This document shows, in pieces, positions 251 to 25,000 of a stretch of DNA of 30,284 nt (the first letter of the stretch is position 1; every line of letters begins with the position of its first letter). Below the pieces are notes generated by a model, which saw nothing but the letters and a program-made list of their open reading frames with translations, ran no database searches and was not told where the DNA came from. Position numbers and translations under genes: made by a program. Location: positions 1-30,284 of the IMG/VR virus record IMGVR_UViG_3300032304_001003; one strand, given 5' to 3'. This DNA is from a virus.

Positions 251-3200
251 TTAATCTGGTGCAACATTGCCGGCCAACACCCACGAGTCTGTGCCAATCT
301 TTAACAGCGTGGCCATACCGTACTCAGACACTAGCCAAGTGCCACCGTTTGAGTAATTGTCATCACCGGGGATCATCACTTGTATACTGCCGCCTTCTGT
401 GTTGATGGCCACACTATCACCTCGAGGATTCACAATGGTGATCACTGTGCCTATTGGAAACTCAACGCGAGCATTGTAGGGAATACGAATGCTTTCGAGG
501 TCGTTGGTACAGAGAATGTGATGTCCACGATCCTTCAATCCCAAAGTATAATTTACACCATTGAACAGTCTTTGCGGAATGTCTGTGGCTGAAGTATTCT
601 GACTTGTACCATCGGCAAACACAATATTGCCCCCGTCTGTGTCATGTACAGTTTCCACAAATAATGGCGGATAAAAACTGCTAACATCATAGTCGTTGGT
701 GTTGTTAGTGAACACTGTGACTTGGGCGACATTGTTTATCAATGGATCACTGCTGTCGCCTAATATGCCAGCATAGTTGTTGGCGTCCGCTATATCAACA
801 AAATCAATATCGTAGTTGATGTCGCTTAGACCACCGGCGTAAAAACCTAATAACGGATTGACATCTGTGTAGCAGAACTGCCCATACTCGCCCGTACCCG
901 TGCCATCTAGAGGCAATCGAGCAGCCCATGCCCAATCACGGAAGGTAAATTCACTTTCCTCATTGTAACGTCCGGTGATATAGAAACTGTTGGTGTCTGT
1001 GACTAGACACTCACCGCTACTGCCAATGCGAGAATCATAGGCAATGTTAGGAGACAGCCAACGCTTCCAAACAGTTTCTCCTGCTGGTGTAAGTAGGAAT
1101 ATTTTAATAGCATAGTTGCTGTCTATGGTGATGTTCCCGTCGTTGTTATCTTCAACTGCTATCAGTAGATTTCCGTCCAGTGTGCGGGCAATGGTTATGT
1201 CATCGCCAAGGGTGCGTCTCTGCCATTTGACTGTGCCTGCGCTGTCCAACTTGCTGACAAAAGCATTACTGTTGTTATCTTCGTGTGTGACATATATGTC
1301 CGTGCCAATGGTTACCACGCTGTGTCCTTCGGAATTGCGGCTTGCAGTGTTGAGTTGACGAGCCCACTGTAGTGTACCTGCGCTGTTGAACTTGTAAACC
1401 ACTGCCAGTTCTTCAAAATCGTCCGCTGCCAATTCTCCATATCCCTGGCCTGTTGCAATGATGTTGTCTTGGCTGTCCACGGTCAATGTAATTAGATCGT
1501 CATAGGTATCCTTGTCTGTACCAAAAGTACGCTGCCAAGTGGGAGTGATCAGCAGACATTCATTGTCTCTTGAATAGGTCACTGACCAAGCAGTTGGAGC
1601 AGATGCTGTGATAGTAAAGGAGTCACTTATAGATTGATCAAGACTGGTAACAGTTATCTCATCGCCGGTAGTATAGCCACTACCGGGGTTGCTTATAACA
1701 ATGTTAGAATAACCACTACCACCGTCACCCACATCCACAGTCAATCCTGTGCCTGTTCCACCTGTTGTGGGCAGGTTATTACCAACCTGATCGTTGCCCC
1801 ATCCTTGATTATCACTTGTTTTAGTAACATCACCAAATGGCACACCGCCTTCGGAACTAAAGTCAACCTGTGAGAATGCTTCTATCTTCCAAGTTGAGGA
1901 TTGACTTGTACCTTGCGAACTATCAATGTTAAAATTGTTCTGGTCAATAAAGAGAGTAATGGTTAGATCATTGGCTGGTGTTGCCCCGCCTAGGCTTGTT
2001 CCAGGAACCACAATGACATCACCGTTGACATAGTTACTACCATTGGCAGTAATTGCACGACTATAGTACTCGCTGTAATCATTGTCAAAGAATGGTCCTC
2101 TTAGTGTAAAAGTAAGTCCAGAACCTACATCAATGTTTGTGCCCGATACTTCATTATCAGTTATAATACTAGAATCAATATGAGCTGTTCCTGTGTGGGT
2201 AACAGTCATACCGTTTATAGGGTCATTAGTAACCACTGTGATGATGATATCATTGTCTGGTGTTGCTCCACCACTAATACTTGTACCTAAAATCTTGATC
2301 TTGTGTCCGGGTAGATAGTCAGTGCCTCGGTCGTAGGCCGTAACACTATAGGTGCCATCACCGTTGTTGGTGATGTCAAATGTAGCACCTGTACCTTGTC
2401 TAGTTGTGCCAGTCAATCCTGTATAACGTTCTACAAAGTCAACAGTTTGGAACGGTGAAATACCAGTTCCGCCAATCTGCCAGTTGTCATTGATTTCACT
2501 AACTTCTGGAACAGCACTTCTTAAAATCACAATAGTATCCACACCGCTGCCTGTTTGTGGGACTACTGGAAACTCTGCACTGAACTGACCGTTCTTTTCA
2601 CCACCTATCACATAGGTGCCTGTGCTGGTCCAGGCTATGGTGTTTAGTGTAACATCCGCGTCACTGTCTTTGAATTCTGTAACATTTAAAATACGACCGG
2701 TATCTTGATCTAGAGTGTATAACACGCTGTAGGTGTAGTTGGCACTAACCGTGCCCAACACCATGATGTTGCCTGTGACGGGATGAATTTTGAGAGCGTG
2801 TATATCACCATCGTCGCCCTCCTCATCTTCATAAACGATCACGCTCCATAGTCTATCTCCTTCAGGACTGACCTTCATTACGAATGCTTCGGAATCGTCG
2901 TCTTCGTAACCACCTATGTAACTGTTGCCCTGTGAGTCAACCGCAACGCAATCACCTTGAATGTCGTCGCTGTAGTCACGACTGTCTGGGGCAATGAACC
3001 AACCTACCTGCGTTTGTGTTAATTTAAGATCGCCATCATTGGGGATTGTCAGTGTACCGTCAGCACCAAATGTATAAGCATAAGTTTCGCTCTTAACCGT
3101 GTTATTGGCCACAGTGGTGTCAGCGTCTGGTACCAGTGTGGAATTTGTTGCTGTGACAGTTCCGCCATAGGTTTCGTGGGTTAAAGGACTGTCGCTGGTG

Positions 3201-4705
3201 GTGTGCGTGACAAAGCGAGCCGGCACACGACTTTCTGTGAAACTTAAATCACCAATGGTCAAGTCAGTGCCTGCTGTGGGCAACTGTACCACAAAGTAAT
3301 CGTATTCTGCGTCTGCCGAGAAGCCGCCGTCAAACGGGGTGGTATTCCAACTGTATCCGTATCCATCCACTGCAAACTTGTCCTCAAATACTGCTATGGC
3401 CTGGCCCGGGCCAATTTCCATATCACTGGGTTCCTTTTCATATAGGTGGGCCACATCAACATAGCGTTGCCAAATCACCGCACCCTGTGTGTCATAGCGA
3501 GCCACGATCATCTTGTTCTGTCCAAGATTTTCTCGTGCGCTTTCGTATTCATTATTGGGTAGTGGGCCTGTTTTCTTGGCAAATGTCACAGATGATAGAT
3601 AAACATCGCCTGTGGCAGTGGCTGTCACTCCTGCGATCCAACTGCCGCAAGGTCCTGGACCAAGTCTACGTGTCCACTGCACTACACCACTAGAATTTAA
3701 CTTTGTCAATATACCAGCACTCTTATCGTCATCGTTGCCGGGATTGCTGTTTATAGTTTTAACTTCATAAGTACCTACCACATAGATATTGCCCAATGCG
3801 TCACTGGCACAGTCGCCACCGTACATATCATAGTTGTCGGGCGCTTCTAAACTCTTGCTCCATACCTCCCCTAAATCTTCATCCAGTTTTTCAATGAACA
3901 TCTTGCCAATACCAGCATTGGCGTCGTTGTAATAACCAGTGACAAAAACATTCTCATCAGGGTCAACGTCAATACCTGTAAGAATAACTAGATCATTTGC
4001 TTCTGGCAACTGTAAGGATTTTTTCAACAACACTGAACCATCAGTGATGCTGATTTCCATTATTAACACTGCGTTAGGAAACTGGTCGCCGACCACTACG
4101 GAAAAGGCCAAAGCCAATGTGGTAGTGCTCTTTTCTTCAATGTAGCCTAGGAAGGAGGGATCCATTCCAATGTCATATTCTTTCTTCCAACCTGGAGTGC
4201 CTGTGGATTCAAACTGCATCACGATGATATCAGAATTTTCATTGTCTATGTTAAGAGTGATATAGGCACGATCCGAACTGTCTATGGCCAATGCTACTGG
4301 ATAATACTCACTGAATGATTTTTGCCATGCTATGGCACCAGCGGCTGTGTATTTGGTAAGAACTGCTATAGGGTATCCGTCACCATCTTCAAAGGTGCTG
4401 GTCAATGAGTAAAGATTACCCAGGCTGTCATAGCGCAGAGCACGGGGTTTAGTGTCACCTTCTTGGCTACGTTGTGTGGCAATCCAGTGTTCTGTGCTGC
4501 CTGCTGTGACTATAACATTGCCTTCAGCAGTAAGAGTAGCACCATCTCCGCCACCATAACTCAACTGTGACCAAGTACTGGTACCATTACCATACTTGAC
4601 CTTGCCAGTATCTGTTTCTAATCCTGGTTCGCCGGCGGCTAATACGGGATTAGTTTGTGTCCAGTTTGCCGCTGTGTCACGGCGTAGTTTGATTCTTGTT
4701 GTCAT
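251..4705 (-). CDS. Giant tail-fibre-like protein with Mtd-like N-terminus and beta-propeller repeats (1484 aa)
   Basis: Virion protein, presumably a receptor-binding fibre. Residues 1-50 (IKLRRDTAANW...LAAGEPGLETDTGKVKYGNGTSTW) match the N-terminal module seen in phage fibres and in the Bordetella phage Mtd protein. At least three blocks (about 60-470, 590-720 and 1060-1290) carry repeats of the type W.R.F/xxxxVDSxGNxYxxGxY, typical of SBBP-like beta-propellers. The middle holds two copies of a G.S.GGATP.ND..IT. module and one GSGYT.GD.ITV module. The last 145 residues form a beta-rich end domain finishing in YGMATLLKIGTDSWVLAGN, a common C-terminus of marine phage fibres. The ATG at 4705 follows a GGAG eight bases upstream, three bases after the 68-residue gene. 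Propellers are unusual in fibres and suggest sugar or protein binding (inference). Confidence 0.85.
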   Translation of the reverse strand: MTTRIKLRRDTAANWTQTNPVLAAGEPGLETDTGKVKYGNGTSTWSQLSYGGGDGATLTAEGNVIVTAGSTEHWIATQRSQEGDTKPRALRYDSLGNLYSLTSTFEDGDGYPIAVLTKYTAAGAIAWQKSFSEYYPVALAIDSSDRAYITLNIDNENSDIIVMQFESTGTPGWKKEYDIGMDPSFLGYIEEKSTTTLALAFSVVVGDQFPNAVLIMEISITDGSVLLKKSLQLPEANDLVILTGIDVDPDENVFVTGYYNDANAGIGKMFIEKLDEDLGEVWSKSLEAPDNYDMYGGDCASDALGNIYVVGTYEVKTINSNPGNDDDKSAGILTKLNSSGVVQWTRRLGPGPCGSWIAGVTATATGDVYLSSVTFAKKTGPLPNNEYESARENLGQNKMIVARYDTQGAVIWQRYVDVAHLYEKEPSDMEIGPGQAIAVFEDKFAVDGYGYSWNTTPFDGGFSADAEYDYFVVQLPTAGTDLTIGDLSFTESRVPARFVTHTTSDSPLTHETYGGTVTATNSTLVPDADTTVANNTVKSETYAYTFGADGTLTIPNDGDLKLTQTQVGWFIAPDSRDYSDDIQGDCVAVDSQGNSYIGGYEDDDSEAFVMKVSPEGDRLWSVIVYEDEEGDDGDIHALKIHPVTGNIMVLGTVSANYTYSVLYTLDQDTGRILNVTEFKDSDADVTLNTIAWTSTGTYVIGGEKNGQFSAEFPVVPQTGSGVDTIVILRSAVPEVSEINDNWQIGGTGISPFQTVDFVERYTGLTGTTRQGTGATFDITNNGDGTYSVTAYDRGTDYLPGHKIKILGTSISGGATPDNDIIITVVTNDPINGMTVTHTGTAHIDSSIITDNEVSGTNIDVGSGLTFTLRGPFFDNDYSEYYSRAITANGSNYVNGDVIVVPGTSLGGATPANDLTITLFIDQNNFNIDSSQGTSQSSTWKIEAFSQVDFSSEGGVPFGDVTKTSDNQGWGNDQVGNNLPTTGGTGTGLTVDVGDGGSGYSNIVISNPGSGYTTGDEITVTSLDQSISDSFTITASAPTAWSVTYSRDNECLLITPTWQRTFGTDKDTYDDLITLTVDSQDNIIATGQGYGELAADDFEELAVVYKFNSAGTLQWARQLNTASRNSEGHSVVTIGTDIYVTHEDNNSNAFVSKLDSAGTVKWQRRTLGDDITIARTLDGNLLIAVEDNNDGNITIDSNYAIKIFLLTPAGETVWKRWLSPNIAYDSRIGSSGECLVTDTNSFYITGRYNEESEFTFRDWAWAARLPLDGTGTGEYGQFCYTDVNPLLGFYAGGLSDINYDIDFVDIADANNYAGILGDSSDPLINNVAQVTVFTNNTNDYDVSSFYPPLFVETVHDTDGGNIVFADGTSQNTSATDIPQRLFNGVNYTLGLKDRGHHILCTNDLESIRIPYNARVEFPIGTVITIVNPRGDSVAINTEGGSIQVMIPGDDNYSNGGTWLVSEYGMATLLKIGTDSWVLAGNVAPD

Positions 4706-4945: not shown

Positions 4946-7900
4946 TCAAGTGTCCCATGAATTGTTAGTTGACTGCCAACAACCGTCTGTGAAAATCATA
5001 GTTGTTAAAGCCCCGTCATCTTCGCCGCCCATATATCCACCAAACGGATAGTGAATACCATCAGTGTATGCTGATCCGTTCACTCGGGCGTGGGCAACGA
5101 TAATTTCTATATTACCACCAACTGATCCGTTCTGTCTAACAAGATACATAATCTGTCCTTCTACACCGTCGGCCAATGTGTAAGCACCGTCTGCCAGTTT
5201 GTTGATGGATTTGGTTAGATCTATAGCAGTGGCTGCGATGACGTTGGTCAATGTGGCTACTGTAAAGATAAGGTTGTCATCGCCTTCGGTACCACCAAAA
5301 TAAGGGCTCCCTCCCAATAGTGTTCCAGAATCTCCAACGCCTTGATTAGAATCACTATCAACAACCACAGCACTAATATCTCCGTTTTCAGCCACAGTGA
5401 TGTCAAGTGTAAATCCTGTGCCAAATACAACACCGGTTTCTGTTCCTGGTGTAAGGTTAGTGTTATTAGTGGGCGATACGGTGACTGTTGCGGCTTCACC
5501 CTTACCAATGTCTTCAAAAAGTGGACCGTCTCTGGCCACTGTGCCAGCCACTACTCGTGTTATTGCTCCGGGCAATGTCGTGGTACCATCTGTGCCAAAT
5601 TGCCAATTGCTTGAAGAATTAGTAACAGTACTGATAGTAAATGTGACAACACTTTCGCCACCCACTGAAGTTATACTATCGCCTACGGTATATCCGCTAC
5701 CAGGAGTAACTATGGTAACAGTACTGGCATATCCACCTTCAACTCCGCCGACATCTATTCGCAATCCTGTGCCAGTACCGCCTGTTGTGGCTAGGTTTGC
5801 AGCAGGACCGTTTCCGTTCCAACCACCGGGGCTGTTCACATTAGAGGTGCCAGTTGGAATTCCGATTATCTTAGTGCCGATAACAACATCGCCGCCATTC
5901 CTTTCAATCTTGACATACTGGTCATCATCACCTAGGAATATGTCAGTGGTTACAGGGTTGCCTGCTACTAGATGAATATGACTGGTTTCATTATTAGATA
6001 TACCGTTGTTAGTTACATTAACAAATAAGCCTGTGGGCAGTCCGTTAGATGAAAAATTATAATATAGTGCTGGATCTGTTTCGCCAGGGTCATTTGAATC
6101 TGTACCGTCGAGGGTGGTTAATGTAAAGGTAAATTCAGAGATCGTGCTGTCAGCAGGTATAGTCCAAGTAACTGTTTCTGTTTCTATTCCTCCCCCTGAG
6201 AAAACTACCTTACCAGTTGTTGCTCGACCCAATGTTTGTGAAGTTACACCAGTACCAGTGATTTCGTAGTTAACCGTTCCAAAATAATTTTCCGTAGAAG
6301 TTTGATTAACTGATATGGTAATTGGACTACCGTATGTGATAAAATTACTGGCTGTCACACTCCATACTGAAAGGGTTGGACGAATAACCAAACTTTGTCC
6401 AGGCAATGCTCCAGGTGGTGTGATAACTGTGGTAGTGGCTGTTTCTCCGATGACGCTGCCTTCGGGTAATGATAACTCACCATCTTCACCAAATCGCCAT
6501 CTGCGCAGTGTTGAGTCACTCAAGTTGATGTCAATGTTAATACCGTTTTCACTGAGGATGTTGATCCCTTCTGATGACTGTATTTCGACTCCACCATTTT
6601 GTGGAAGTTTAACATAGTCACTGTCATCACCTAAGAATAAATCAATAGCCTGCTGGTCTGCCTTCATTATGTGAAAATGGCTTTCTCCGCCCGCACATTC
6701 TGCTTGATTGCCTAGCAGTATTGTACCACGAGATGTGGTGATTGGAACTCCAGAATCTGCGTCACCGTCTCCTATAATAGAACCGTTTGGTAATTGTAAA
6801 GTACCATCATCTAAAAATGACCACCCTGCTTGATTGTTTATGTCAATTTGGACTCCATATGTGTCGTCTTCGTTTTTAGTCGGTATAAGGTTAAAATAGT
6901 TTAGGCCAGTGCTGGTTTTGCTTACTTGTAAAGACCCACTATTACTAAACAATGCTGTCCAGACATCGTTGACTAATCTATCAACAGTGATTGTGCCAGT
7001 GAATGCTGTGGTCTGAACACTAGCGTCTGGGAATGTGATCGAATTAACGTCAAGGTCAGTGTCCGGTGGAGGTTGAACCAAAGGTGCCGCATCTACCCAA
7101 ACATCACTATACTTGATGTAGAGTCTGCCTTCAACTGTGTTGAACCATAGTGTGCCGTTGGCTGCTGTGGGTGCTGTGTCCTGACGAACTACTTTGATAT
7201 CTAGTAAGTCATCGCCAGTCATGGCGTTGCGAATGGTCTTGCCTGGAGGTATAGCTAAATCACCATCTGTGCCAAATCGCCAAGTATAACTGTTGCCTGA
7301 TGAACCAAATGAAACTGTTTTGTCGACCGATGCGTCAAATCCTGCTGTAATATCTTGATCAACGTGTATTTTCCACTGATTTCCAGGTTCTTCAACGACA
7401 TCTGTGACTGTGACAGATATCTGTGCGCCCCACGATATGGCCACTGAGTCGCCTACGCTAACAGCGGAGCCCAAGTTGGGATAATCTTCGTGGTCAATAA
7501 ACAACCGCCAAACACCGCCAGGTGGCACAAGTTCATCTACTGTACCAACTTCAACATTCTGCGGGCCATCCCTTTTCTCTGTGCGAACCTCTACACCATA
7601 TCGAGCAGTCGGATCAAGTTGAGATCCAGGTAATTTAACATAGTTGTAGTCGTCACCTAGGAACAGATCACTAGCGGGTGGATTACTATTACTACCGTCA
7701 AAGGCAATGTGAAAGTGTCCTGCTACGCCTGGCACTTCCATGTTAGTACCAATGGCCAATGTGCCTCTATCAGTCACAAGTTTGATACCGTCAGTATTAT
7801 TGATAGCACCACCAGCTGGTAGTGTTAGATCGCCATCGTTATTGAATGTCCAAGTATGAGCATCTGTGCTGTATTTTGTGGCAATAGTAGCACCGTTGTT

Positions 7901-10183
7901 GTCAACCCATACCCATGAATCTTCATCAGCACCTTGCGGGCCTGCTGTGATACCAGCATAGTTGCCTGCTACGGTTTTTAGTGTAGCACCGTTGATGATA
8001 CTTTGATCTGGCAATACAACAACACCGCCATTGGTAACTTCCAGTACATACTGGTTGTTGAGTCCCTGGTTAGGATTTTCATTGTACAGTTTGCTGGTGG
8101 TAATCTTTCCATCATCTAATGAGTCAGTAAAGCCTTCACCAAAGTCAGATATGGATCCGCCACCGCCTCCACCTAATACTGAGTTACCACTGCTGTCTAC
8201 AATGTCACCGCCTGGAGGTAGTTTTAATCTTGTGGTGTCATCAACAAATTCAAATTTAAACTCACCACCGCCACTAATTTCAATATGAGCACCTTCTTGA
8301 TCAACCCATACATAGTTTTGGTTGCTTTCTATCTGTGCGTAACTGCTACCATAGACAACAGAATCAGGAGATTCTAATCTAATTTGTGTCGTTGATTCAA
8401 TGTTGATATCGAGGCCGTTACCGTAGATGATAAGTTCATCATCGTCACCGTCAATTTCAATGCGAGATTCTCTATAATATCTAAACTCAATACTGGTTAC
8501 TGTAGTAGGATTTGCGGGGGGTGACGAATTAGTAGAAATGGCAACACTGCCATTGGAGCCGTTGTCGGCACCATCATACGCAATAAATTCTCCCTCGTTG
8601 ATGGAAATTGTAATGCCGACAGCATCGCCTAAATCTTCGTTGAGGAAATCCTGAAGTTCAGTAGCACCAGTAAATGCTACTTCTCCCGTGCCGCCTGTTC
8701 CTGTCCACTCTGCTGTTAGCCAACCATAGTAGCTAAACGAAGCAGTTTGGTAGTTGCCCCTTGCTCGCATTTCTGCTCGGCCATTGTTTGGATCCAGTCT
8801 AAGGTAGGCTCGAAGAGCATCGTTGTCGTCTTTGGATTCAAGTTGGAAGACTGCACCCGGGTCCGCAATGATCTTGTTATTTTCAAATGTGATATCACCA
8901 GTGTTGGCATTGCCACCTGGTTCACCTGGATCTCCTTTGTCGCCTTTTGCACCAGGTGCTCCATCTTGTCCCGGAGCACCATCTTGACCAGGTGCGCCAT
9001 CTTGACCAGGTGCTCCATCTTGTCCAGGTGCTCCGTCTTGACCAGGTGCGCCATCAGCACCGTCGGCACCGGGCTGACCTACTAATGTTTCTAACCACGC
9101 TGCTTGTGTTCCAACAAAACCACCGGCAACTGCTAGATCATAGGCACTGCGACCATCTAGACCGTTTTGCCCAGGGTCTCCGTTATCTCCCTTGTCACCT
9201 TTGTCTCCGCTGTCACCTTTGTCGCCTTTAGGCCCTACAATAGGTCCCACATTGTTCCAAGCCGCATCTGTTAAGTTCCAGAACCATAAGTCACCATCAC
9301 CTTCTGTGACGATCCAACCGTGTCCGGCAAAGTCTGCTGGGTTAACTGGTGCTGCTGGTAAGTCTGCGATTAATGCTTTGGTACCTTGTAAGGTTACTGA
9401 AACACCCTGTGCGCCAGTATCACCCTTGTCACCTTTTGAACCATTAGTTCCGTTGGTACCGTTAGTGCCGTTTAGGCCATTCTGCCCAGGTGCTCCATCA
9501 GTACCATCACGACCAGGTGCTCCATTCTGTCCCGGAGCACCATCTTGTCCCGGAGCACCATCTTGTCCCGGAGCACCATCTTGTCCCGGAGCACCATCTT
9601 GTCCCGGAGCACCATCTTGTCCAGGTGCGCCATCTTGTCCAGGCACTCCTCGGTCGCCAGGGTCACCTTTAGGGCCGCGAGGTCCGGGTTCGCCTATGCC
9701 TGTTAAAAGTCCTTCTCGGTCTGTTAAATCTGCAATGTCTGCAGGAGCATCGGGGATGTCTGTATAGGAAATGTTTTGACTAATAGGTATATTGTTAATC
9801 TTTAGTTCATTGGTTCCTGGTGTTAGACTTAAAGGAACTCCCCCCAAATACACAGTACTAGTACTAACATACAAACTATTGAAAGGCTTATCAAGACTAC
9901 CTAAGTTTCCACCATTGGCTACAGATGGGACAATATCGCCACCAACAGTTAACCCACTGGTAATAGTTGTTGCTTGATCAATTACAATAGGAGTGCTGTC
10001 TGTAGTTGACATTACACTACCGTTGAATTCAAATGCGCCTAAATTTAATCCACTGCCGTCGTTTATTCCCAGTGCGATGTACAGTTCAGAAAAGTTTTCA
10101 TTGATTTTTGTAAATGCGGTACGTAGACTATCGGCATTTCGATCGTTTGCAGTGTCGCCTATGTTAACTATTAATTTTGCCAT
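4946..10183 (-). CDS. Giant collagen-repeat tail fibre protein (1745 aa)
   Basis: Residues 1-40 ([29 protein letters not shown]) form an anchor module shared with the next two upstream fibre genes. Collagen Gly-X-Y tracts lie at about 162-266, 323-350 and 376-430. Between them are a [18 protein letters not shown] module and the motif [20 protein letters not shown], often found with phage collagen. The rest repeats two short modules: W.FG.DGdL.LP.G..I at least five times, and H(F/I)H(I/L)...[12 protein letters not shown] three times. The last 80 residues (about 1665-1745) form a distinct beta-rich end domain. The start is supported by GGAG five bases before the ATG. It is presumably a trimeric distal fibre with a collagen stalk; the role comes from repeat type and context. 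Confidence 0.88.
8894..9058 (-). repeat. Collagen-like tract 3 with degenerate 18-base repeats
   Basis: Encodes [19 protein letters not shown]... and ends [14 protein letters not shown]. The units share the 18-base period of tract 1 but differ more from each other. A shorter tract (9134-9217, [13 protein letters not shown]...) lies between the two. Confidence 0.88.
9386..9700 (-). repeat. Collagen-like Gly-X-Y tract 1
   Basis: Encodes about 105 residues of Gly-X-Y, mostly GAPGQD units flanked by [13 protein letters not shown] and [18 protein letters not shown]. It contains the tandem DNA repeat at 9531-9620. Confidence 0.9.
9531..9620 (-). repeat. Five perfect 18-base tandem repeats in the collagen tract
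   Basis: The plus-strand unit CCCGGAGCACCATCTTGT occurs five times without a mismatch, with degenerate copies on either side. It encodes GAPGQD on the minus strand. Identity at the DNA level, including synonymous positions, points to recent expansion by slippage or recombination. Confidence 0.92.
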
Positions 10184-10194
10184 TGTCGCTCCAA

Positions 10195-12228
10195 TTAGTA
10201 TAATGCATTAAAACTAGCGCCGTCATACCATACTGGATAAGGTCTGCCATTGCTCTTAGATGCCGGATCCCAGTTAGTACAGTCTGCAATGTACACACCT
10301 ACAGTAGGAGTTAACGGAGCAGCAGTTAATGGAGTCATTGCCCAGGAACCGTTTTCTCTTACAATAAATGCATTATTACCTGCAGCCAAATTTACACGGC
10401 CATTGATTTTAGATATAACAATCCCTGCCATACCCGACGACAGTGTTAGGTCAACACCGTCTGGAGTATCTAAGGCTAATCTTGGCTCAATAGTGCTTTC
10501 ACTGTAAACATCTAGCCTAACGTTATATGATAATTCGTCTGCATTGCTTGGAACAAATTTAATTTTGTCTGTTCCTCTAATGCTAGACTGAATTGATGTT
10601 AGTTGAATATCGTTGTCAACGTTGATATTTGTATTGAATGTTGTTTGTACATCCACAGTTATGCCGCTGGAGTCGTTGGTGCTGATAGTGCTGTTGATAA
10701 ATTCTAGTGTTGATGTGTAGAATAGTTCTTTGGTTGTAGTATCATAAACAACTGGCCTTGCTGAACTTGTAGTTGATCTAACGGGATTAACATAGAATCC
10801 AGCTGCTGCGCCGTTGAGTATAGAACTGCTGGCATTTAATATAATACTGTTTGCTGATTGATTATTGTGTCCTGCATAGTAACCAACGGCAATTGCATAA
10901 TCGCCCTGATTTGATTGCCCTGCATTGTCACCAATTGCAACAGCACTGTCGCCTTGTTCAAAAAATCCCGATGAAGCACCTATTGCAACACCACGACCAC
11001 TTTGTCTATATTGACCTGCTTGATTTCCTATAGCGACTGCACGGGTGCCTTGATCTTCTGATCCAGCTAATGCACCAACGGCAACTGCACGAAAGGCTTG
11101 ATTTAAACCGGCATTATCGCCTAGTGCAATTTCTAGATCAGCTGTTCTCAATGTTGTGGCTTCTATATTGCCATACACTGTAGCAGTGTTGCCATCTATG
11201 ATCTGTGTTGAATTATCTGTGAACACTGATCCTATGAAAATGCCTCGCAGTGTGCCACTAACAGCATCAACTAATATGGTAGAATCATCTGCAAACACTG
11301 AACCAACAATATCTACCTTGTTGTCAAATGCTATTGTTAGTCTTTCTGATTCTCCTATTGGCTCAGAAGTAGTTAGGTTAATGCCGTATCCTGGATGAAT
11401 CTGCAATATGTCCGAGGTTATGTCTGCTTCTAGATCAGTTTGCCCTGGTACTCTTATTGTTGCAAATGATCTTGTAACAGGAGCAGTATTGGTAATGCTG
11501 GCCACATTGTTACCGTCAATAAACACAGTGATACCACCACCGCCTGCTGTGATTCCTCTAATACCGGAGTTTGTAATTTGCACTCCTCCGGTAGATTGAT
11601 TAACAGAAATGCCAGGCCCTGCTGTTAAATTTGTTACACCTTGATTGGTAAGTGTTATATTATCACCAGTGGTAGCACTTACACCAATATATGTAGATCC
11701 TTGGATACTTCTAACACCGCTGTTTCCTATGGTCAATGTATCTGTTGTTGCATCAGTGATTAAACTAATACCTGTCGTAGACGTTATGTTTAATGTGTCG
11801 GTAAAAGAATCTGCAACAATATTTGACTGTGTGGGTACAGCTATAGTTTTAAAACTAGTATGCGCAGGATTAATAATCAATTCGCCATCGACTGTGGAAT
11901 TTTCAGGAAGGTCTACAGTTGTGCCTGTGCCTCTAATCTGTGCGTCACCCAACCAAACACCGTTGAGTTGATTTCCAGGGATGTCAAACCATTCTGCTAC
12001 ATAAAGACTTTTCCAAGTCTTTGATGCAGATCCTAGATTAAATTCATTTGAGGTATTGGGACTCACGCTAGATTCTAAGCTAGTGAAACTCAACGGTTCA
12101 AGATCCAATGCTGATCCTACAACTACTCCCAACTCCAAAAAGTTTTGATTTATCTCATCGAATGCCTGTTGCACATTACTCCACAGTATTGGAGGAGCTC
12201 CGATAGAAATGTTTGTTTTGTACGCCAC
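10195..12228 (-). CDS. Tail fibre protein with YadA-like head repeats (677 aa)
   Basis: The N-terminal 40 residues ([28 protein letters not shown]) are a diverged copy of the anchor module of the flanking fibres. Repeats of the form AGI/LTxGxGIxVNxxxG and TLTIxNSGVRSIxG fill about 130-250. Residues 367-468 carry six AVAIG.xAG-type repeats, like the left-handed beta-roll head of trimeric autotransporter adhesins such as YadA. These are followed by [12 protein letters not shown]...[12 protein letters not shown] (about 473-507), a conserved tail of phage trimeric fibres. The start is GTG (12228-12226), two bases after the upstream stop, with GGGAG nine bases before it. It is likely a trimeric adhesin-like host-recognition fibre. 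Confidence 0.86.
10825..11130 (-). repeat. YadA-head-like repeats in the 677-residue fibre
   Basis: Six degenerate repeats of about 17-18 residues: [44 protein letters not shown] and AIAVGYYAG. Each pairs with a linker such as NQAFR or DQGTR. The pattern is that of the trimeric beta-roll head of YadA-type adhesins. Confidence 0.85.
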
Positions 12229-12230
12229 GT

Positions 12231-15200
12231 TTAAGTTCTCCCTACTGCGATTTCAATGGTCCCAATATGATCAGAGTCATATTCTTCCAAGGCCTTACCT
12301 ACTACAGTTCCTACTTTGACATCACCTCTGGCAACAACAGCCACTCCTGAAATTCTAGAAGTAATCATAATATCGCCTTTCTTGATTTTGCCAACCACTT
12401 TACATGGTACACGACCTTGTAGTGCTACTAGATTTTTTAATCCTGGACATGCTTCATACATGGCAAATGCCGCTGTGTTTGAAACAACTCCAGCTACTCT
12501 TGTATCGCCTTCTACATTTGTTAATGTAACTTCCTTGTCTCCTCCGAATACCAATACAGTACCTACTTCGTATTCTTTATCGCCTTCGTAGTATTCTGCC
12601 AAGTCAGCGGAATAGGTTGCCTGCAATCTTGATTCGTTAGGTGATGTGCCAGTTAACGTCCATCGTCCAGTAATAGTACCGGATGTTGTAGCGCCGCCTG
12701 TGGTTAGAGCCAAAGTTTGGACCTGAGAGCATCTAATAGGTGCATCACCAGAACCGTTGATGTCTTTGAACTCGTGACTGTTATTCCAGTATGATGTTTT
12801 TTCATCAGTGGCCAACGAACCGTTGGAAACTAGGATACCGCCGCGGCCCTCTCCTCCATAAATTCTATTGTACCAACCAGAAGCAGTTTGCCATCTTGCC
12901 ATTGCAGTTCCGCTAGGAATTGAAGTATCCCCTGCTGAACTGGTAGCATTTAGGAAGTATCTAAAGGCATTGATTATATTTCCGCCAAAGTTTCCTGCAA
13001 CTGAACGCTCAACTAGTTTATAATTGTCAGCAGTTGTGTAACCAGTTGCAGCAGATGATGCTTCTTGAGTCTGGAAAGAACCGTCAGCAGTGCCTGCTGT
13101 AATCCTTCTTAAGAAACCTGTTGTGAATGCCGAGCCTGTAAACGGATTTTGACCGAACTGCGATTTTTTAATACCGAGGCCGTTGTCAATTACTGTGGCA
13201 AATGATACTTCTGCTGAGTCCGCTTCACCGGCAGTGGAATTTCCTATCAGATGATTTCCGGGTAATTTTTCTAGTTTAGTAAGAACAATTCCGTTGTCCT
13301 TCATCTGTATCCAACCGTTAGTGGCCACAAACTCGGCTGAGTTGAATGTTGACAATCCCAACGATGCTTGTGTAAACGAACCAGGTGCTGCTGATAAAGC
13401 AGCATTGGATGCCTGCATGTTCAGCTTACTCTGAACAATGGCTGCTGATGCATTAACATCAGCATTTAAAATTACTCCTGGTTGAATTTGTGCATCTACG
13501 GTATTGGCCGTGCTGTCGAAACTAAGTTTAATGTCTCCGATCACAGCAGCATTTTCTGCAAAGTTTCCAGCGCCTGTGAACACTAATAGGTCAGCGGCCT
13601 GTACATTGTTAATGGTAAATTCTTGTAGATTGGCAAAAGTCAAACTTCTTAAGTTTACTGCATCTTGGGGATCTACCGGATTTGCAAGTTGAATAATGGA
13701 ATTGTTATCCATGTCGATGTCGCCCTTCATAGGCAACAATCCACTCAATGCAAGGAAACCACCAGTTACAGGAGGAATTAACTGACTTGATGTTACTGAA
13801 GATCCGCTGTGTGTTAGACCTAGTCTTCTTTCAATATAGGTTCTAGTTGCATTTTCTGTAGGCACAGTGTCAATGGCATTGTCACTAAATCCAGAGTCTA
13901 CAGAGAACTCAGCGATCGGAACACCTCGTTTAAATCCGATACCGTCCAAGTTACTCAACGCAATAGCTGCCGAGAATGTTACTCGACCTGTACCTTGGTC
14001 AACTGCAAAGTATGGACCTACTCTAAAGTTACCGAATTGGTCTGTGGTCACATAGAAAACACGTCCCACACTTCTTTCCTGTGTTTCGTTAGATTCACTG
14101 GCAGCATTTACCGGCGGCCCATAAATTTCGTTAGGGTAGTTAGTGCTGGCATAAGATCCAGTACCAATCTCTAACAAATCGTGTGATGTAACTCGAGTTA
14201 ACGAAATACGAATAGTCAACGTACCGTCAGCACCGTCGGACCTAATAGGTACAGCAGATTTGATGGTATATGCACCTTCGTAGGCAACTAACGAATCTAC
14301 CAGTGGTCTATTTAAAGTTATTCTTGCATAAGGATTTCCAGTAACTGTGGTAGTGTCATATTGGGTAATAACATATGCTTCACCTTTAAAATAGAAAGTA
14401 GAATTTACAATTCTTGGTTCTTCGCTAGGAGCCACTGGTACCACGGCAAAATCGTCATCGCCTGCTCTACCAGTAACTTTAGAAAAACTGTGTGTACCAG
14501 ATTGACTACCTGTGGTCTCAACGGCTATTCCACTGACCAGCGGTGATACACTAATATTAAACGTAGTTGGACTTAATACAGTTTTTACAAAGTAATGACG
14601 TTGTATATTGATCCCGCCCGGTAAACTTCCTGTGGTGGTAAATCTTATTACATCGTTAGCACTCAGTCCATGAGCACCCACAGTACTGATTATTGCAGAT
14701 GTTGCTATGGATATTGTACAAGTTGTAGTAGTTCCAGCTGCAATCTCTCCAGGTACATATACGGTTAAATCTATGTAATTGTAGTTTTCTCTTAAAGAAG
14801 TCAGTGCCAACCCTTCCGGAATGTAACTGTGAACGCCGGACCCTGCTCCTGAAATTACAATCGGATTGCCGTTCTTGATTGCTGATATTCTAAACGTGGT
14901 ATCGGTCAATCCGCTATCTAACACAAAATATCTATCAGTGGGCACAAAATCAGGCCCAGTAGGCAGTGTGCCTGTGGTCAAGAAGCTAATGAGATAGTCT
15001 GTGATTAGATTGTGTGTTTTAACACCTTTGATAGCTAGACCAGTACCGCTGGACAATGTTACCACACTGCCTGTCGGAGAAGTTGATAGATAAAATTGAT
15101 TATAATTAACAACGTCAATTACGTAGTATGTTGTTCCGCCAGTAAGTCCGTTGCCTGATGTTTTAGGAATAAATTTCTGTCCCACCAACAACATGTGATT

Positions 15201-18200
15201 TTTAGCAGTGGTTACTAGATTAGCTGCTGGTGTGGTGCCGTCCTGCTCATAACCGATTGTTGTAATGGTTGCAATTACACTTAATACTGTTGGGTTAGCT
15301 ACTGTAAATTCTACTTCAAACGGTCCGTTTGGATCCACGTATTCTTCAAATTTTAAAACACGATAAACGTCTTCTGATTCAGCTAGTATCAAACCAGTAG
15401 ATGGCCTTGTAGCCACATCGACGATATCTCCAGTTAACACCGTAGTACCATTAAGACGTAGTGTCATTGGTGTGCCGTCTGGAATAACTGCAAACAGACC
15501 GTCAAAAGTTCCGGAATCATCAGAAGTAAGATTTAAACGTGCAACACCCGGTGGCAGTTCTTCTGTGCCAACAGATGTTACTGGATATCTATAAATCAAA
15601 TTGCCGTGATCAACTTCTAGTTCGGAGTTGCCTAACGGAGTATATTGATAATTGTATACATAGACAAACAAACCATTTGACACAGTGGCATATGTGGGTG
15701 ATGGTGCATAACAGTCAACACGTTGGGAAAGATCTTGATAGATTGTAACCGGTGTTGGAACTTCTAATGGATCAGCTCCTTCTGCTACTAGAGCGTAGGT
15801 ACCGTGAGCACTTGATCCGCCGATGGATCTAATCTGTCCACCGTTTAACGAATAGTAAGATATGTGACAGTAGTAAGTAAACATCGATACTGCTTCTGTC
15901 AAACCACCGTTGGTGGCAATTAATCCGTAGCCAAGATCGCAGACCTGTGTAAAGTCGTTGCTCAACATAGATCTATTACCCGGCATCAACAGTTCATATA
16001 TTCGTTGATAACTTAGGGTTCCTACACCTGCACCGGTAATCTCTATACCAACAGTTCCCACTGGATCAGCACTAACTCTAAATTGGTTAGCACTGAAACC
16101 TGCGGCAATGATAAAATATTCAATACTGATTGCGGCATTATCAACTGACGCAACAATGCCAGCAGGCAACGAACCTGTAGTGGAGAATCTTAGCGTAGCA
16201 CCTATTTGTAATTTATGATCCGATCTAGTAAACACAGCCGGATCGGCTATCGTGTGTGTAACAACTTGAGCACCTGCCGGAACCACAAATGGAGAAGTTT
16301 CATCTAGTATGAACGTTGCTGTAGATCCATTTGGGCTGTAGACGAAATCTCGTATATAGTTTACTCTAATAGAGTTGTCGTTGACAATAAAGGATGCTGG
16401 AACATTGGGTAATCTGTCTAGTCCCGAAACAGTGATTCTAAAAGAATTTACTGTAGTTTCGTGTCTAAATTGTAAGTTACCAGTAAAGCCGTCAACAAAC
16501 ATACCTCCTGCAAATGTCTGAGAATCAATACTTCTTGAGAAAGAAGCACATTCCTGAGCGTAAGGAGACTTGGCAAGAACTTGCCCCTGCGGATCTAATA
16601 CTAGAGTAAATCCGCCATGACCTTGCATGGTCAATGCTCTTACAATGTTTGCATCATTGCACAAGAACACATCCATTTGGTCGTTGTTCTTGGGTTGGTT
16701 AACGCCCGAACCCGACGGATTGATTACATCAATCAGCGTACTGACAAGATCTTCGATAACATCAAATGAACCAGATTCTGAAGAAAATGCAGGATCTATA
16801 ATCTGTGTAAACACCTCTTGGAATATAGGTGCTACTTGAATATTTTGTATTACTGAATCTGCAAGATCTAAAACTTTTAAAATAGCTGCTTCGGTTTCGC
16901 TGTATTGCTCTTGTATTGCTTTCAAGCCGCTAGCACTTTGATAATACTTTAGACCGGCAGAAACAGTTCTGCCATATCCTCCAAATTTTAAATCAAATAC
17001 TATAGAGTCAACAATTAGTCCAACGTCTCGTCTACATAAACTTTGATCGTAAGTAAAAGTAGGGGCAAATGGAGTCACACTATTTGCAATCTGATAATTG
17101 ATCCAGGCAACAACTTCGTTTTGTATAAAAACTTTGTTAAGATCTAATAATGCCGCTGCCGCTCGATAGCCGCCTTTGTTGTCAATGATAGGATGTACAG
17201 GCTGTGAGGAATCAGTTAGATAGTGATAGCCAAACAATTGGTCAGCCACAGTCAACCCGTCAATAACTGTGTCTCTTCTAAATTTATAAAGTGCCCAGGG
17301 ACTTGAACTTACTCCCCGACGCGGTTTGATTATTGTTCTTCTAAACTCGTCGCCTATGATAGCCACGTTCTGCGACAATTTCAGCGGTAAGTTTTCTTCA
17401 TAGATGCCAGTTTCTACCAGCACAGAAATTTGTATAATTTTTGTAGAGTCGCCATAGGAGATTTTTTCTCCTATCACAAAACTACCAAATTTAATATCCA
17501 CATCAAAAATTTCGTCACCGTCTGAATCTAGTTCTCCGTTGTGTGACAGAATTTGTGCAAGTGCTCCAGAAGTTTCTCCTTTTAGGAATAAACCTTCTCT
17601 AATATCTCTACCTCTAAAGGCTTCCGGTGTGTTGGTAGTTACATCACCTGTGAAGTCTGTTCTTTGTCCTTCCGTTTTTATTAAAAATCTAGGTAGGTTG
17701 GCAACCAGCGACGGTATAGCAGTAAAGCCGGATCCTGTGTCATCGATGGTGATTCCTGTAATGATCCCGCCACTAACGTTTGCAGTTCCGAACGCACCAG
17801 AACCTGAAGTATCTCCCGGTGCCGGAGTAACTCTAACAGATACCAAGCTATAACCAGATCCTCCATTGCTAATGGTAACACTATTAACTCTAAAAGTTAC
17901 AGAAAATCTAAGACCCAATCCAAACTCGCTGTCAGAGGTAGTAACTACGCTAGTAACATCTGGCGGCAATGCACTGTATGCTCCAGAGCTGATTTGTCTA
18001 AAGGTTACAACTGGTCCGGGTGTAGTTGCAGTGGTCAACACTTCGAATGTTGCAGGAGATCCTGTTCCACCAACTAGTGTTAGAATGTCTCCGGGCTGAT
18101 AGTTAGTTCCCGAAAATGAAATTGTTGCAGAATCAACACTCATAACAACACTGCCGGCAAATCCGCTGCCTGAGCCTGGCGCTGCTAAAATACCTTCCAA

Positions 18201-19028
18201 GGTGGCAAACTTAGTGCCGTTATCGTAGGTAAGCGTCTTTTTGTAAGGACCAATGTCTAATCTTGATTCATTTACTAGTTCTTCAGCTCTTTTAAGTGCG
18301 CCTTCGATGGTTCGATATGCAGCAGCTACTGAACGACCTTGTACTGATTTAGCTAGTCCGGGTCTTTCGTCTTCGCCTGATGTAGCGACAAACAAGTTTA
18401 CTCTACTAGAGAATCCAGCATTATCGACATATCGTTTGGTAACAGCGATCAAACCATCGTACAATGCATCGTCATCGTCTTGAGGATCTCTGGATAAAAT
18501 CAATGGTCCTGTCATGGTACCGAACGATTGTGTTACTAGGCCAGTAGCAGGATTTACAGCATTTACACCTGCTCTAGATATCTTGGTATCTACATAGCCT
18601 TTGTTGGCAGCTTCGTCGTCGGATATAGGAGTTGCTAGATCTTGAATTCTATATTGATTTCCGCCCGATGTAGCAGATAGGTTCCCGCCCAATTGCGGAT
18701 TAGGATCTCCTACAATGGCTGAAAATTCTGTACTTAATCTAATTTGATTGGGGTTAGTTTCGTAATCAACGATTACACCAACTGCACCTACTATCTGTTT
18801 CCATTGTAGGCCGTCTGTTGTGCTGTTAATAGAAAGAATAGCATTATCCTGCCCAAAGTAACCACCTTCTGGAGCATCGTCTAGATTCTCAAATAGTAGT
18901 CTTTCGCCTAGACCCAAGGAACTATAAAGTTCTCTAAAATTATCGTTTACTTTTCGGAACGAATCGCGTATACTATCGCCGGTACCGTCGTTGCCTACTG
19001 TTCCGATGTCAATTGGTTTTCTTGCCAT
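12231..19028 (-). CDS. Very large virion structural/tail fibre protein (2265 aa)
   Basis: This is the first and largest gene of the fibre operon. Residues 1-39 (PIDIGTVGNDGTGDSIRDSF..VNDNFRELY) are the clearest copy of the shared anchor module. At about 535-575, TGIYEENLPLKLSQNVAIIG followed by RRTIIKPRRG resembles the beta-helix segment of T4-like cyanophage structural proteins. At about 1650-1800 the stretch VFYVTTDQFGNFRVGPYFAV, then ALSNLDGIGFKRG and PTENATRTYIERRLG, is also typical of that family. The last 120 residues (DLAEYYEGDKEYEVGTVLVFGG onward) form a domain reminiscent of the Peptidase_G2/fibre C-terminal fold, but I see no proof of a self-cleaving site. AGGATT lies before the ATG, and a GATAAATAT late-promoter-like motif lies 31 bases upstream. 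Confidence 0.88.
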   Translation of the reverse strand: MARKPIDIGTVGNDGTGDSIRDSFRKVNDNFRELYSSLGLGERLLFENLDDAPEGGYFGQDNAILSINSTTDGLQWKQIVGAVGVIVDYETNPNQIRLSTEFSAIVGDPNPQLGGNLSATSGGNQYRIQDLATPISDDEAANKGYVDTKISRAGVNAVNPATGLVTQSFGTMTGPLILSRDPQDDDDALYDGLIAVTKRYVDNAGFSSRVNLFVATSGEDERPGLAKSVQGRSVAAAYRTIEGALKRAEELVNESRLDIGPYKKTLTYDNGTKFATLEGILAAPGSGSGFAGSVVMSVDSATISFSGTNYQPGDILTLVGGTGSPATFEVLTTATTPGPVVTFRQISSGAYSALPPDVTSVVTTSDSEFGLGLRFSVTFRVNSVTISNGGSGYSLVSVRVTPAPGDTSGSGAFGTANVSGGIITGITIDDTGSGFTAIPSLVANLPRFLIKTEGQRTDFTGDVTTNTPEAFRGRDIREGLFLKGETSGALAQILSHNGELDSDGDEIFDVDIKFGSFVIGEKISYGDSTKIIQISVLVETGIYEENLPLKLSQNVAIIGDEFRRTIIKPRRGVSSSPWALYKFRRDTVIDGLTVADQLFGYHYLTDSSQPVHPIIDNKGGYRAAAALLDLNKVFIQNEVVAWINYQIANSVTPFAPTFTYDQSLCRRDVGLIVDSIVFDLKFGGYGRTVSAGLKYYQSASGLKAIQEQYSETEAAILKVLDLADSVIQNIQVAPIFQEVFTQIIDPAFSSESGSFDVIEDLVSTLIDVINPSGSGVNQPKNNDQMDVFLCNDANIVRALTMQGHGGFTLVLDPQGQVLAKSPYAQECASFSRSIDSQTFAGGMFVDGFTGNLQFRHETTVNSFRITVSGLDRLPNVPASFIVNDNSIRVNYIRDFVYSPNGSTATFILDETSPFVVPAGAQVVTHTIADPAVFTRSDHKLQIGATLRFSTTGSLPAGIVASVDNAAISIEYFIIAAGFSANQFRVSADPVGTVGIEITGAGVGTLSYQRIYELLMPGNRSMLSNDFTQVCDLGYGLIATNGGLTEAVSMFTYYCHISYYSLNGGQIRSIGGSSAHGTYALVAEGADPLEVPTPVTIYQDLSQRVDCYAPSPTYATVSNGLFVYVYNYQYTPLGNSELEVDHGNLIYRYPVTSVGTEELPPGVARLNLTSDDSGTFDGLFAVIPDGTPMTLRLNGTTVLTGDIVDVATRPSTGLILAESEDVYRVLKFEEYVDPNGPFEVEFTVANPTVLSVIATITTIGYEQDGTTPAANLVTTAKNHMLLVGQKFIPKTSGNGLTGGTTYYVIDVVNYNQFYLSTSPTGSVVTLSSGTGLAIKGVKTHNLITDYLISFLTTGTLPTGPDFVPTDRYFVLDSGLTDTTFRISAIKNGNPIVISGAGSGVHSYIPEGLALTSLRENYNYIDLTVYVPGEIAAGTTTTCTISIATSAIISTVGAHGLSANDVIRFTTTGSLPGGINIQRHYFVKTVLSPTTFNISVSPLVSGIAVETTGSQSGTHSFSKVTGRAGDDDFAVVPVAPSEEPRIVNSTFYFKGEAYVITQYDTTTVTGNPYARITLNRPLVDSLVAYEGAYTIKSAVPIRSDGADGTLTIRISLTRVTSHDLLEIGTGSYASTNYPNEIYGPPVNAASESNETQERSVGRVFYVTTDQFGNFRVGPYFAVDQGTGRVTFSAAIALSNLDGIGFKRGVPIAEFSVDSGFSDNAIDTVPTENATRTYIERRLGLTHSGSSVTSSQLIPPVTGGFLALSGLLPMKGDIDMDNNSIIQLANPVDPQDAVNLRSLTFANLQEFTINNVQAADLLVFTGAGNFAENAAVIGDIKLSFDSTANTVDAQIQPGVILNADVNASAAIVQSKLNMQASNAALSAAPGSFTQASLGLSTFNSAEFVATNGWIQMKDNGIVLTKLEKLPGNHLIGNSTAGEADSAEVSFATVIDNGLGIKKSQFGQNPFTGSAFTTGFLRRITAGTADGSFQTQEASSAATGYTTADNYKLVERSVAGNFGGNIINAFRYFLNATSSAGDTSIPSGTAMARWQTASGWYNRIYGGEGRGGILVSNGSLATDEKTSYWNNSHEFKDINGSGDAPIRCSQVQTLALTTGGATTSGTITGRWTLTGTSPNESRLQATYSADLAEYYEGDKEYEVGTVLVFGGDKEVTLTNVEGDTRVAGVVSNTAAFAMYEACPGLKNLVALQGRVPCKVVGKIKKGDIMITSRISGVAVVARGDVKVGTVVGKALEEYDSDHIGTIEIAVGRT

Positions 19029-19388: not shown

Positions 19389-20536
19389 ACCAAGTATTTT
19401 TGAATAATATCTTGATATTTTTCTTTAGTAGCAGCTTTAGGAGCACATAACCCGCACCAGCATTTGTTTTTGGCACAAATAACAGTGGGCAAGGAATCTT
19501 GTTCTAAATCGTGTTTTAGCTGAGATATAATTTTATTTCGATCTTTTAGATAGCCAATGGGAGCTATTTGTTGATCAAAGTTTACTCTGCAATCTTTGTT
19601 TAAGAAGATTTCACCGGTTACTTGTTTAACGAATACAAAAAAATAATTCACAGAACAGTGCCAGCCTTTGAGTCTATTTTGTATATGTGTCTGCGTTTCC
19701 TGGTAGTCTTGATCTATGTGAAATGGAGTTCCGCCACAACAGCTTCTTCCCTTAGACTCTAAATTGACTATAGAAAACACTTTCTTCTTTAAGTCAGCTA
19801 ACAACGGAGTTGGTTCGCATTTGCTAGAACATCCTGTTTCGCAGCTGGATTTTCCTGTGTTGTAATATTGCTCGAACCAATCTGCTTGATCTCGGTTGTA
19901 ATAAAACTTAAAATTAAAAGGTCCGTGATCTATTTGTCTAGGAAGATACTTGATTTCGTTTTCTTTACACCATGCAATCATTGCTTGACAATTATCCCAG
20001 TTTCCGGGATGCATCATGATAGCACAATGATAATTCTTTTGTTGATTCTTTAAAGTGAGTAGATTTGTTCGAACAAGTTCTTGTTGTTCTGTAGTAGCTT
20101 CTGCATGGTAACTTATGGTAAAATAATCAACAAGGTCAACTATTCTATTCCAGATCTTTTCTTTTACCACAGCATTGGTTATGGTGCTGAGCCCTAGACT
20201 CCACTGATACTTTTTTGATAAATGTTGGTCTTTTAGATAGTTTAATATATCAACTATATTAGGATGAAACAAACTTTCACCGCCAAATATGTTCATGCTA
20301 ACATGTCTGTGATTTTCATTTCTTTTAGACATGTATAAATTAGCATACTCTAAAAGAAAGTCTGCGGTATCTAGACATTCTTCTAAAGACGGATGAGGCA
20401 CGGAATTGTCATGAGCATCTTTACCGCAGTAGGTGCAATCAAGATTACACTTGAGAGTAGACTCCCAAGTAACATAAAAAATTGGTTTACGATTGTCGTC
20501 GGTGAGGACAGGTTCTATGGATTGATATGGCGTCAT
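19385..20536 (-). CDS. Radical SAM protein with C-terminal Cys clusters (383 aa)
   Basis: This is a radical S-adenosylmethionine enzyme of unknown substrate. The 4Fe-4S/SAM motif CxxxCxxC is seen as KCNLDCTYCG (Cys30, 34, 37), and a GGE-type SAM-contact motif appears in NIFGGESLFHPN near residue 85. Cysteines in the second half (SCETGCSSKC, RSCCGG, KDCRVNF, CAKNKCWCGLC) suggest auxiliary Fe-S clusters of a SPASM or twitch type. At 383 residues it is far longer than QueE. Its ATG overlaps the iscA stop in an ATGA arrangement, so the two are translationally coupled. It is the last gene of the sod-iscU-iscA operon, which fits a role as an Fe-S client of that module (inference). Alternatives include a peptide- or sugar-modifying enzyme. 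Confidence 0.85.
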   Translation of the reverse strand: MTPYQSIEPVLTDDNRKPIFYVTWESTLKCNLDCTYCGKDAHDNSVPHPSLEECLDTADFLLEYANLYMSKRNENHRHVSMNIFGGESLFHPNIVDILNYLKDQHLSKKYQWSLGLSTITNAVVKEKIWNRIVDLVDYFTISYHAEATTEQQELVRTNLLTLKNQQKNYHCAIMMHPGNWDNCQAMIAWCKENEIKYLPRQIDHGPFNFKFYYNRDQADWFEQYYNTGKSSCETGCSSKCEPTPLLADLKKKVFSIVNLESKGRSCCGGTPFHIDQDYQETQTHIQNRLKGWHCSVNYFFVFVKQVTGEIFLNKDCRVNFDQQIAPIGYLKDRNKIISQLKHDLEQDSLPTVICAKNKCWCGLCAPKAATKEKYQDIIQKYLV

Positions 20537-21229: not shown

Positions 21230-21232
21230 ATT

Positions 21233-24992: not shown

Positions 24993-25000
24993 ATTTTTAT

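What the first reader, a model, noticed from the sequence alone, without database searches (positions are those of the whole stretch)
4946..19028. Three adjacent giant fibres share one N-terminal anchor module
The first 40 residues of the 2265-, 677- and 1745-residue proteins align around I.IG....D..RD.F.K.N.NF.ELY, while the remainders differ completely. This implies duplication of a virion-docking module fused to different receptor-binding bodies, so the particle may carry several fibre types on equivalent sites or stack them through this module.
Basis: seen in the sequence. Interest (0 to 1): 0.5.

Follow-up and report, generated by a model that had tools for sequence, protein, structure and literature searches.

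The report
Tandem fibre genes with T4-type anchors
Three neighbouring tail genes of an uncultured T4-like virus begin with the short anchor known from the T4 baseplate proteins gp9 and gp10; related viruses carry the same row of genes, in which one slot keeps its anchor while the rest of the protein is swapped freely.

Summary
Residues 1-42 of the 2265- and 1745-aa proteins align at 45% identity (E 2e-7). The 677-aa protein carries a divergent version lacking the D..RD half; a held-out profile test supports it. The module is the start of Pfam PF07880, the N-terminus shared by T4 gp9 and gp10. The 2265-aa protein passes Pfam's cut-off; the other two do not. In the T4 genome the Pfam model rings only at gp9 and gp10.

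New here: related IMG/VR contigs carry a conserved row of up to four such genes. Modules sort by gene position rather than by genome (5 label changes on a 64-row tree, shuffled mean 35.8). Bodies at positions 1, 2 and 4 are conserved. Position 3 (the 1745-aa gene here) keeps its module but has largely unrelated bodies; protein lengths run from 84 to 2560 aa.

Best reading: several gp9/gp10-type trimer anchors, each fitted to its own place or partner, with position 3 as the exchangeable fibre slot. 'Equivalent sites' is disfavoured; stacking is undecided. AlphaFold2 models were too poor to test a shared fold. New variant of a known kind.

The parts
18903..19028 (-). Module of the position-1 gene (residues 1-42), gp9/gp10-type N-terminus
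   Evidence: PF07880 30.8 bits, cut-off 25; PDB phmmer to gp9/gp10; alignment with T4 gp9 and gp10
12231..19028 (-). Position-1 gene, 2265 aa; body conserved among relatives; pieces match PHROG tail-fibre families
12109..12228 (-). Divergent module of the position-2 gene (about residues 1-40; NI..G..PP..W....AFD.IN.NF)
   Evidence: no PF07880 hit and no phage hit in the PDB
10195..12228 (-). Position-2 gene, 677 aa, GTG start
10058..10183 (-). Module of the position-3 gene (residues 1-42)
   Evidence: PF07880 15.7 bits, under the cut-off; family profile A4 finds T4 gp10 at E 3e-10
4946..10183 (-). Position-3 gene, 1745 aa, collagen repeats after the module; the variable slot in relatives
   Evidence: (Collagen 97.7 bits)
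251..4705 (-). Next gene, 1484 aa, with a different N-terminal module (Mtd_N) and beta-propeller repeats; not a carrier

Best explanation
The shared 40 residues are the N-terminal anchor of the T4 gp9/gp10 family, which begins trimeric baseplate proteins. This virus belongs to a T4-like group in which the adjacent gp9/gp10 pair known from T4 is matched by a row of three to four anchor-bearing genes. Shown: the sequence family; the conserved gene order; modules that sort by gene position; conserved bodies at positions 1, 2 and 4; and a position 3 whose body is exchanged wholesale (84 to 2560 aa) behind a kept module. Inferred: each product is a trimer whose anchor binds its own place or partner at the baseplate rim, as the N-terminal domain of T4 gp9 does on gp7. 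Positions 1, 2 and 4 would be fixed connector or structural fibres and position 3 the exchangeable host-recognition fibre, with the 84-aa form acting as a minimal fibre or cap. The row need not mean that several fibre types compete for one site.
For: PF07880 over its cut-off for the 2265-aa protein. The Pfam model rings in T4 only at gp9 and gp10, and so does profile A4, which contains no T4 sequence. A4 finds T4 gp10 in the PDB at E 3e-10. A 40-aa module query finds 1784 of 50,697 phage records at E <= 10, with cyanophage gp9 on top at 69% (60 rows seen). Held-out profile tests: 12 of 12, 11 of 11, 8 of 8 and 6 of 6 found, no shuffle as high. Runs of three or more adjacent carriers in 48 of 117 loci, some from the same contig. 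Tree by position. Bodies: pairs aligned over at least half of both bodies 0.90, 0.73, 0.03 and 0.94 for positions 1-4. L008 and L013 have position-1 genes 97% alike over the first 400 aa, but position-3 proteins of 557 and 84 aa. In S-SSM7 one carrier lies between two genes labelled gp7, and in Mosig the carrier lies between genes labelled as baseplate wedge proteins. T4: the gp9 N-terminal domain binds gp7, and the gp10 N-terminal 200 residues are 23% identical to gp9 (PMC3004832, passages).
Against: No structure: both AlphaFold2 models poor. The PDB match of position 1 stops near residue 47, so the domain that follows the anchor in gp9/gp10 is not recognised. The position-2 family finds no phage protein in the PDB and no PF07880 hit. 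The row lies far from the wedge genes in the longest relative (36-45 kb against about 122-130 kb). No docking partner was identified; the gp8 family gave 0 of 9, without a positive control. The tree has only 43 columns and warns of long branches. Relatedness by position alone does not prove different binding sites. About half (0.52) of the position-3 body pairs still share some piece.
Confidence: 0.68

Rival explanations
1. Equivalent sites: the three modules are interchangeable plugs for one kind of socket, so particles carry mixed fibre types.
For: Positions 1, 3 and 4 share about half their module residues (means 0.44-0.57 within a record). Three copies per wedge would need three sockets, and T4 gp9 and gp10 each have 18 monomers in the tail (table in PMC3004832).
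Against: Modules cluster by gene position: 5 changes, shuffled mean 35.8, as low in 0 of 200. Within-type identity 0.59-0.85 exceeds between-type identity in one record, 0.30-0.57, and the latter matches the cross-record values 0.31-0.54. Position 2 has lost half of the motif.
Confidence: 0.12
2. Stacking: the modules join the proteins to one another in a branched or serial fibre, as the gp10-like XD domains do in phage CBA120, with only one of them on the baseplate.
For: Neighbouring genes in one order; precedent in CBA120 (PMC8825819, passages) and RaK2 (PMC10253068, passages); in T4, gp12 sits on the gp10 N-terminal domain (PMC3004832).
Against: In CBA120 the branching is done by XD2 and XD3, not by the first residues or by XD1; no XD2/XD3 match was seen in the Pfam, PHROG or PDB results for these proteins, though such folds would be hard to see by sequence.
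Confidence: 0.15
3. The module is only a trimerisation or folding starter for fibres and has no docking role of its own.
For: Short, strictly N-terminal (246 of 250 carriers with a closed 5' end) and fused to unrelated bodies. One low-confidence model puts a helix at residues 18-39.
Against: Carriers that lie in operons annotated as baseplate wedge and the gp9/gp10 family itself point to the baseplate; a bare folding starter would not need position-specific signatures.
Confidence: 0.05

Closest known systems
T4 gp9 and gp10 (Pfam PF07880; PDB 5iv5, 1qex, 2fl8)
   Same: Same N-terminal 40 residues by profile; adjacent genes on one strand; same module on different bodies
   Different: T4 has two carriers (288 and 602 aa) next to gp6-gp8 and gp11-gp12. 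Here three to four carriers, up to 2839 aa and 2969 aa, apart from the wedge genes in the one relative examined. Only the first 38 of 175 Pfam positions match
[quoted passage not shown]
   Same: Best sequence match to the module, 59-69% in the top rows
   Different: One carrier per genome at this sensitivity in these three, in the wedge operon (P-SSM7)
Synechococcus phage S-SSM7
   Same: Three carriers with different bodies, two annotated as baseplate wedge tail fiber connector and one as tail fiber
   Different: Dispersed over the genome, not in a row; a further gene labelled gp9 (SSSM7_231) is not matched
CBA120 TSP1-4 and RaK2 branched adsorption complexes
   Same: Several receptor-binding proteins organised by T4 gp10-like N-terminal domains (PMC8825819, PMC10253068, passages)
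   Different: Those use XD1-XD3 and unrelated anchor domains; these were not detected here

Membership tests
PF07880 T4_gp9_10_N | Pfam score over the curated cut-off, 2265-aa protein | tested here: met
   30.8 bits against 25; 33.1 at genome level
PF07880 T4_gp9_10_N | Pfam score over the curated cut-off, 1745-aa protein | tested here: not met
   15.7 bits; its family profile nevertheless finds T4 gp10 at E 3e-10
PF07880 T4_gp9_10_N | Pfam score over the curated cut-off, 677-aa protein | tested here: not met
   No hit; related only by held-out profile and shuffles and hhalign E 3e-9
PF07880 T4_gp9_10_N | Match along the whole 175-position domain (anchor plus following domain) | tested here: not met
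   Profile positions 1-38 only; 3-37 for the 1745-aa protein
T4 gp9/gp10 baseplate proteins | Trimer attached to the baseplate through the N-terminus | not testable with these tools
   Monomer models only, mean pLDDT 46-47
T4 gp9/gp10 baseplate proteins | Gene in the gp6-gp12 wedge operon | tested here: inconclusive
   Not seen near the row in the window or in relative G002, where wedge genes lie elsewhere; the window is a 30-kb fragment
CBA120-type branched complex | XD2/XD3 domains in the organiser protein | tested here: inconclusive
   No match in sequence libraries; fold not testable here

The most novel reading that the evidence does not exclude
The baseplate of this uncultured T4-like group has up to four different gp9/gp10-type sockets per wedge, one of which (position 3) is a dedicated exchange slot that can be loaded with anything from an 84-aa cap to a 2560-aa fibre without touching the other fibres.
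Probability: 0.35. Interest if true: 0.55.

Novelty: new variant of a known kind. Interest (0 to 1): 0.35.

Why it matters
If right, it shows how a T4-like baseplate was extended by repeated use of one anchor family, and it points to a single gene that changes between close relatives while its neighbours stay. That makes host-range evolution in an uncultured, abundant phage group testable from sequence alone. The module also gives a simple marker for finding tail-fibre genes in virus contigs where annotation fails.

Tried and rejected
Chance similarity of low-complexity N-termini: rejected by shuffles and held-out profiles.

The next gene (1484 aa) as a fourth carrier: rejected; it has Mtd_N and no similarity above shuffles.

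Recent duplication: not favoured, because paralogues within a record are not clearly more alike than across records (0.30/0.31, 0.51/0.50, 0.44/0.47, 0.31/0.33, 0.33/0.33, 0.57/0.54, same record/all cross pairs; 3 to 7 same-record pairs each).

Shared fold by prediction: both jobs gave mean pLDDT 46-47, so no fold search was made. Locating gp8 in relatives: 0 of 9 without a positive control, so uninformative. A residue-40 breakpoint by ungapped identity: seen for position 3 (0.53 to 0.14), but position 2, whose bodies are homologous, also falls (0.29 to 0.18), so I rest the swap claim on body alignments and not on this profile.

Dropped rows: the 11 of 27 position-3 proteins with bodies under 60 aa were left out of the pair count, and ORFs cut by contig ends were left out. 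In one search 19 four-gene runs were collapsed to 16 distinct ones. One run, L113, is probably another arrangement: its positions 2 to 4 do not group with the others, though its position 1 does, on a long branch; it was kept in the counts. The window has a run of three and is not in that tree.

Paper searches listed no paper whose title or shown abstract describes tandem gp9/gp10-module genes. This is no proof of absence, since the library is partial. PF07880 occurs in one paper (listing only).
Full report
What is there. On the minus strand, three ORFs follow each other with gaps of 2 and 11 bases: 2265, 677 and 1745 aa, then a 1484-aa ORF. The window is a 30,284-base IMG/VR virus record, classed as a virus record. 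Upstream genes include a radical-SAM protein, an Fe-S assembly pair, a superoxide dismutase, UvdE, a DAHP-synthase-family protein and a pterin synthase.

Is the similarity real? The first 60 residues of the 2265- and 1745-aa proteins score 107 (0 of 2000 shuffles as high). The 677-aa protein scores 54 and 42 against them (0 and 2 of 2000). The 1484-aa protein scores no better than shuffles. The 677-aa protein lacks half of the printed motif. To test it without circularity I built a profile from the other three families and scored its family: 11 of 11 found at 11.2-22.1 bits, best of 2200 shuffles 8.5. The other three families, held out in turn, were found in 12 of 12, 8 of 8 and 6 of 6. Profile-profile comparison agrees.

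What the module is. Pfam PF07880, N-terminus of T4 gp9/gp10: the 2265-aa protein scores 30.8 bits (cut-off 25), profile positions 1-38 of 175. The 1745-aa protein scores 15.7, below the cut-off, and the 677-aa protein is not found. By phmmer against the PDB the first 81 residues of the 2265-aa protein find gp9 and gp10 of T4 and of the phage in 9f4a (E 5e-5 to 0.004). The profile of the 1745-aa family finds T4 gp10 at 3e-10 and T4 gp9 only at 0.18. The 677-aa family finds no phage protein in the PDB. As a control, that profile and the Pfam model ring in the T4 genome at gp9 and gp10 only. The Pfam model rang in 2 of 14 control genomes, neither over the cut-off. A 40-residue query found 1784 of 50,697 phage records at E <= 10; I saw 60 rows spread down the ranking, nearly all annotated as gp9/gp10-type baseplate proteins where annotated. 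So the module is a well-known one.

The row of genes is conserved. In 117 loci, some from the same contig, 251 of 1452 ORFs carry the module. It starts within the first 15 residues in 246 of 250 carriers with a closed 5' end. 48 of 117 loci have three or more adjacent carriers, and so do 36 of the 80 from the module search (many loci are cut by contig ends). The full row is: position 1 (about 2200-2500 aa), position 2 (about 500-750 aa), position 3 (variable) and position 4 (about 190 aa). The window shows positions 1 to 3 and then the 1484-aa Mtd_N gene. In relative G002 the order is position 1, position 4, Mtd_N gene, Ig-repeat gene. No position-4 gene is seen in the window, which ends soon after.

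Are the modules interchangeable? A tree of 64 modules from 16 distinct four-gene rows needs 5 changes of position label (least possible 3; shuffled mean 35.8, as low in 0 of 200). Position 1 needs 1 change, positions 2 and 4 need 2 each, and position 3 needs 4. It has 43 columns and warns of long branches, so only the clustering, not the branching order, is used. Within-type identity is 0.59-0.85; between types in one record it is 0.30-0.57, about the same as across records. The copies are therefore old and fitted to their positions. This speaks against equivalent sites but does not prove different ones.

Which gene is the variable fibre? Among loci with a position-1 gene, body pairs aligned over at least half of both bodies are 0.90 for position 1 (40 bodies), 0.73 for position 2 (31), 0.03 for position 3 (16 bodies; 11 shorter ones left out) and 0.94 for position 4 (20). 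Position-3 protein lengths run from 84 to 2560 aa; about half (0.52) of its body pairs still share some piece. L008 and L013 are 97% alike in the first 400 residues of position 1 but have position-3 proteins of 557 and 84 aa with modules 78% alike. Of 6 pairs with position 1 at least 90% alike, 2 differ more than 1.5-fold in position-3 length; the other pairs in that class are mostly alike (median body identity 0.98), so the exchange is not constant. In the window this slot holds a 1745-aa protein with collagen repeats.

How it probably works. In T4, gp9 and gp10 are trimers; the N-terminal domain of gp9 binds a gp7 domain, gp12 sits coaxially on the gp10 N-terminal domain, and the first 200 residues of gp10 are 23% identical to gp9 (PMC3004832, passages). 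By analogy each anchor here starts a trimer and ties it to a place on the baseplate rim. Carriers in other phages lie among wedge genes: between two genes labelled gp7 in S-SSM7, next to gp25/J-domain/gp8 genes in Mosig, and just before a 1375-aa gene and gp8 in P-SSM7. In relative G002 the row is apart from the wedge genes, which does not speak for or against docking. That record has proteins of PHROG families for baseplate wedge, hub-lysozyme, late sigma factor and SbcCD-like subunits, so it is T4-like. Which protein receives each anchor is unknown.

Precedent for the idea. S-SSM7, a cultured phage, has three carriers with different bodies, dispersed; a fourth gene labelled gp9 is not matched. 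P-SSM2, S-CAM1, S-CAM3 and PA5oct had no match. Conserved N-termini with swapped C-termini are a known rule for phage tail fibres (PMC10684548, passages), and branched complexes built on gp10-like domains are known (PMC8825819, PMC10253068, passages). What I did not find described in eight answered paper searches is the conserved row with one exchange slot.

Limits. No trimer prediction was possible; two monomer models were poor. Host and habitat are not known; body pieces of the 2265-aa protein match phages of Synechococcus, Prochlorococcus and Pelagibacter, and also of Campylobacter and Pseudomonas, so a marine origin is only inferred.

Noticed in passing
window 251-4705 (-): 1484-aa protein beside the row starts with another known anchor, Mtd_N (PF18454, 53.9 bits), and holds SBBP beta-propeller repeats, so the cluster uses two different N-terminal modules.
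   Followed up: partly
window 20533-21793 (-): An IscU/NifU_N-type scaffold gene, an Fe-S_biosyn (IscA/SufA-type) gene and an Fe/Mn superoxide dismutase gene lie next to each other: a possible Fe-S and oxidative-stress set carried by a phage.
   Followed up: no
window 22081-25692 (-): UvdE UV endonuclease, a DAHP_synth_1 protein (possibly KDO8P synthase, recalled) and a 6-pyruvoyl tetrahydropterin synthase family protein.
   Followed up: no
L007:10892-11146, L013:10223-10477 and others: Position-3 genes of only 84 aa: the module plus about 48 residues of a conserved end (G.MVYNTTTGKFQGYAADAN...GWADLH), the smallest form of the fibre slot.
   Followed up: partly
window 4946-10183 and 251-4705: A 115-column body piece is shared between the 1745-aa carrier and the Mtd_N protein (41%), hinting at exchange of body parts across the two anchor types.
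   Followed up: no
window 12231-12700 (-): C-terminal about 140 residues of the 2265-aa protein match proteins of the Sinorhizobium phage Phosso and Agrobacterium phage Atu_ph07 (about 40%), far from T4-like cyanophages.
   Followed up: no
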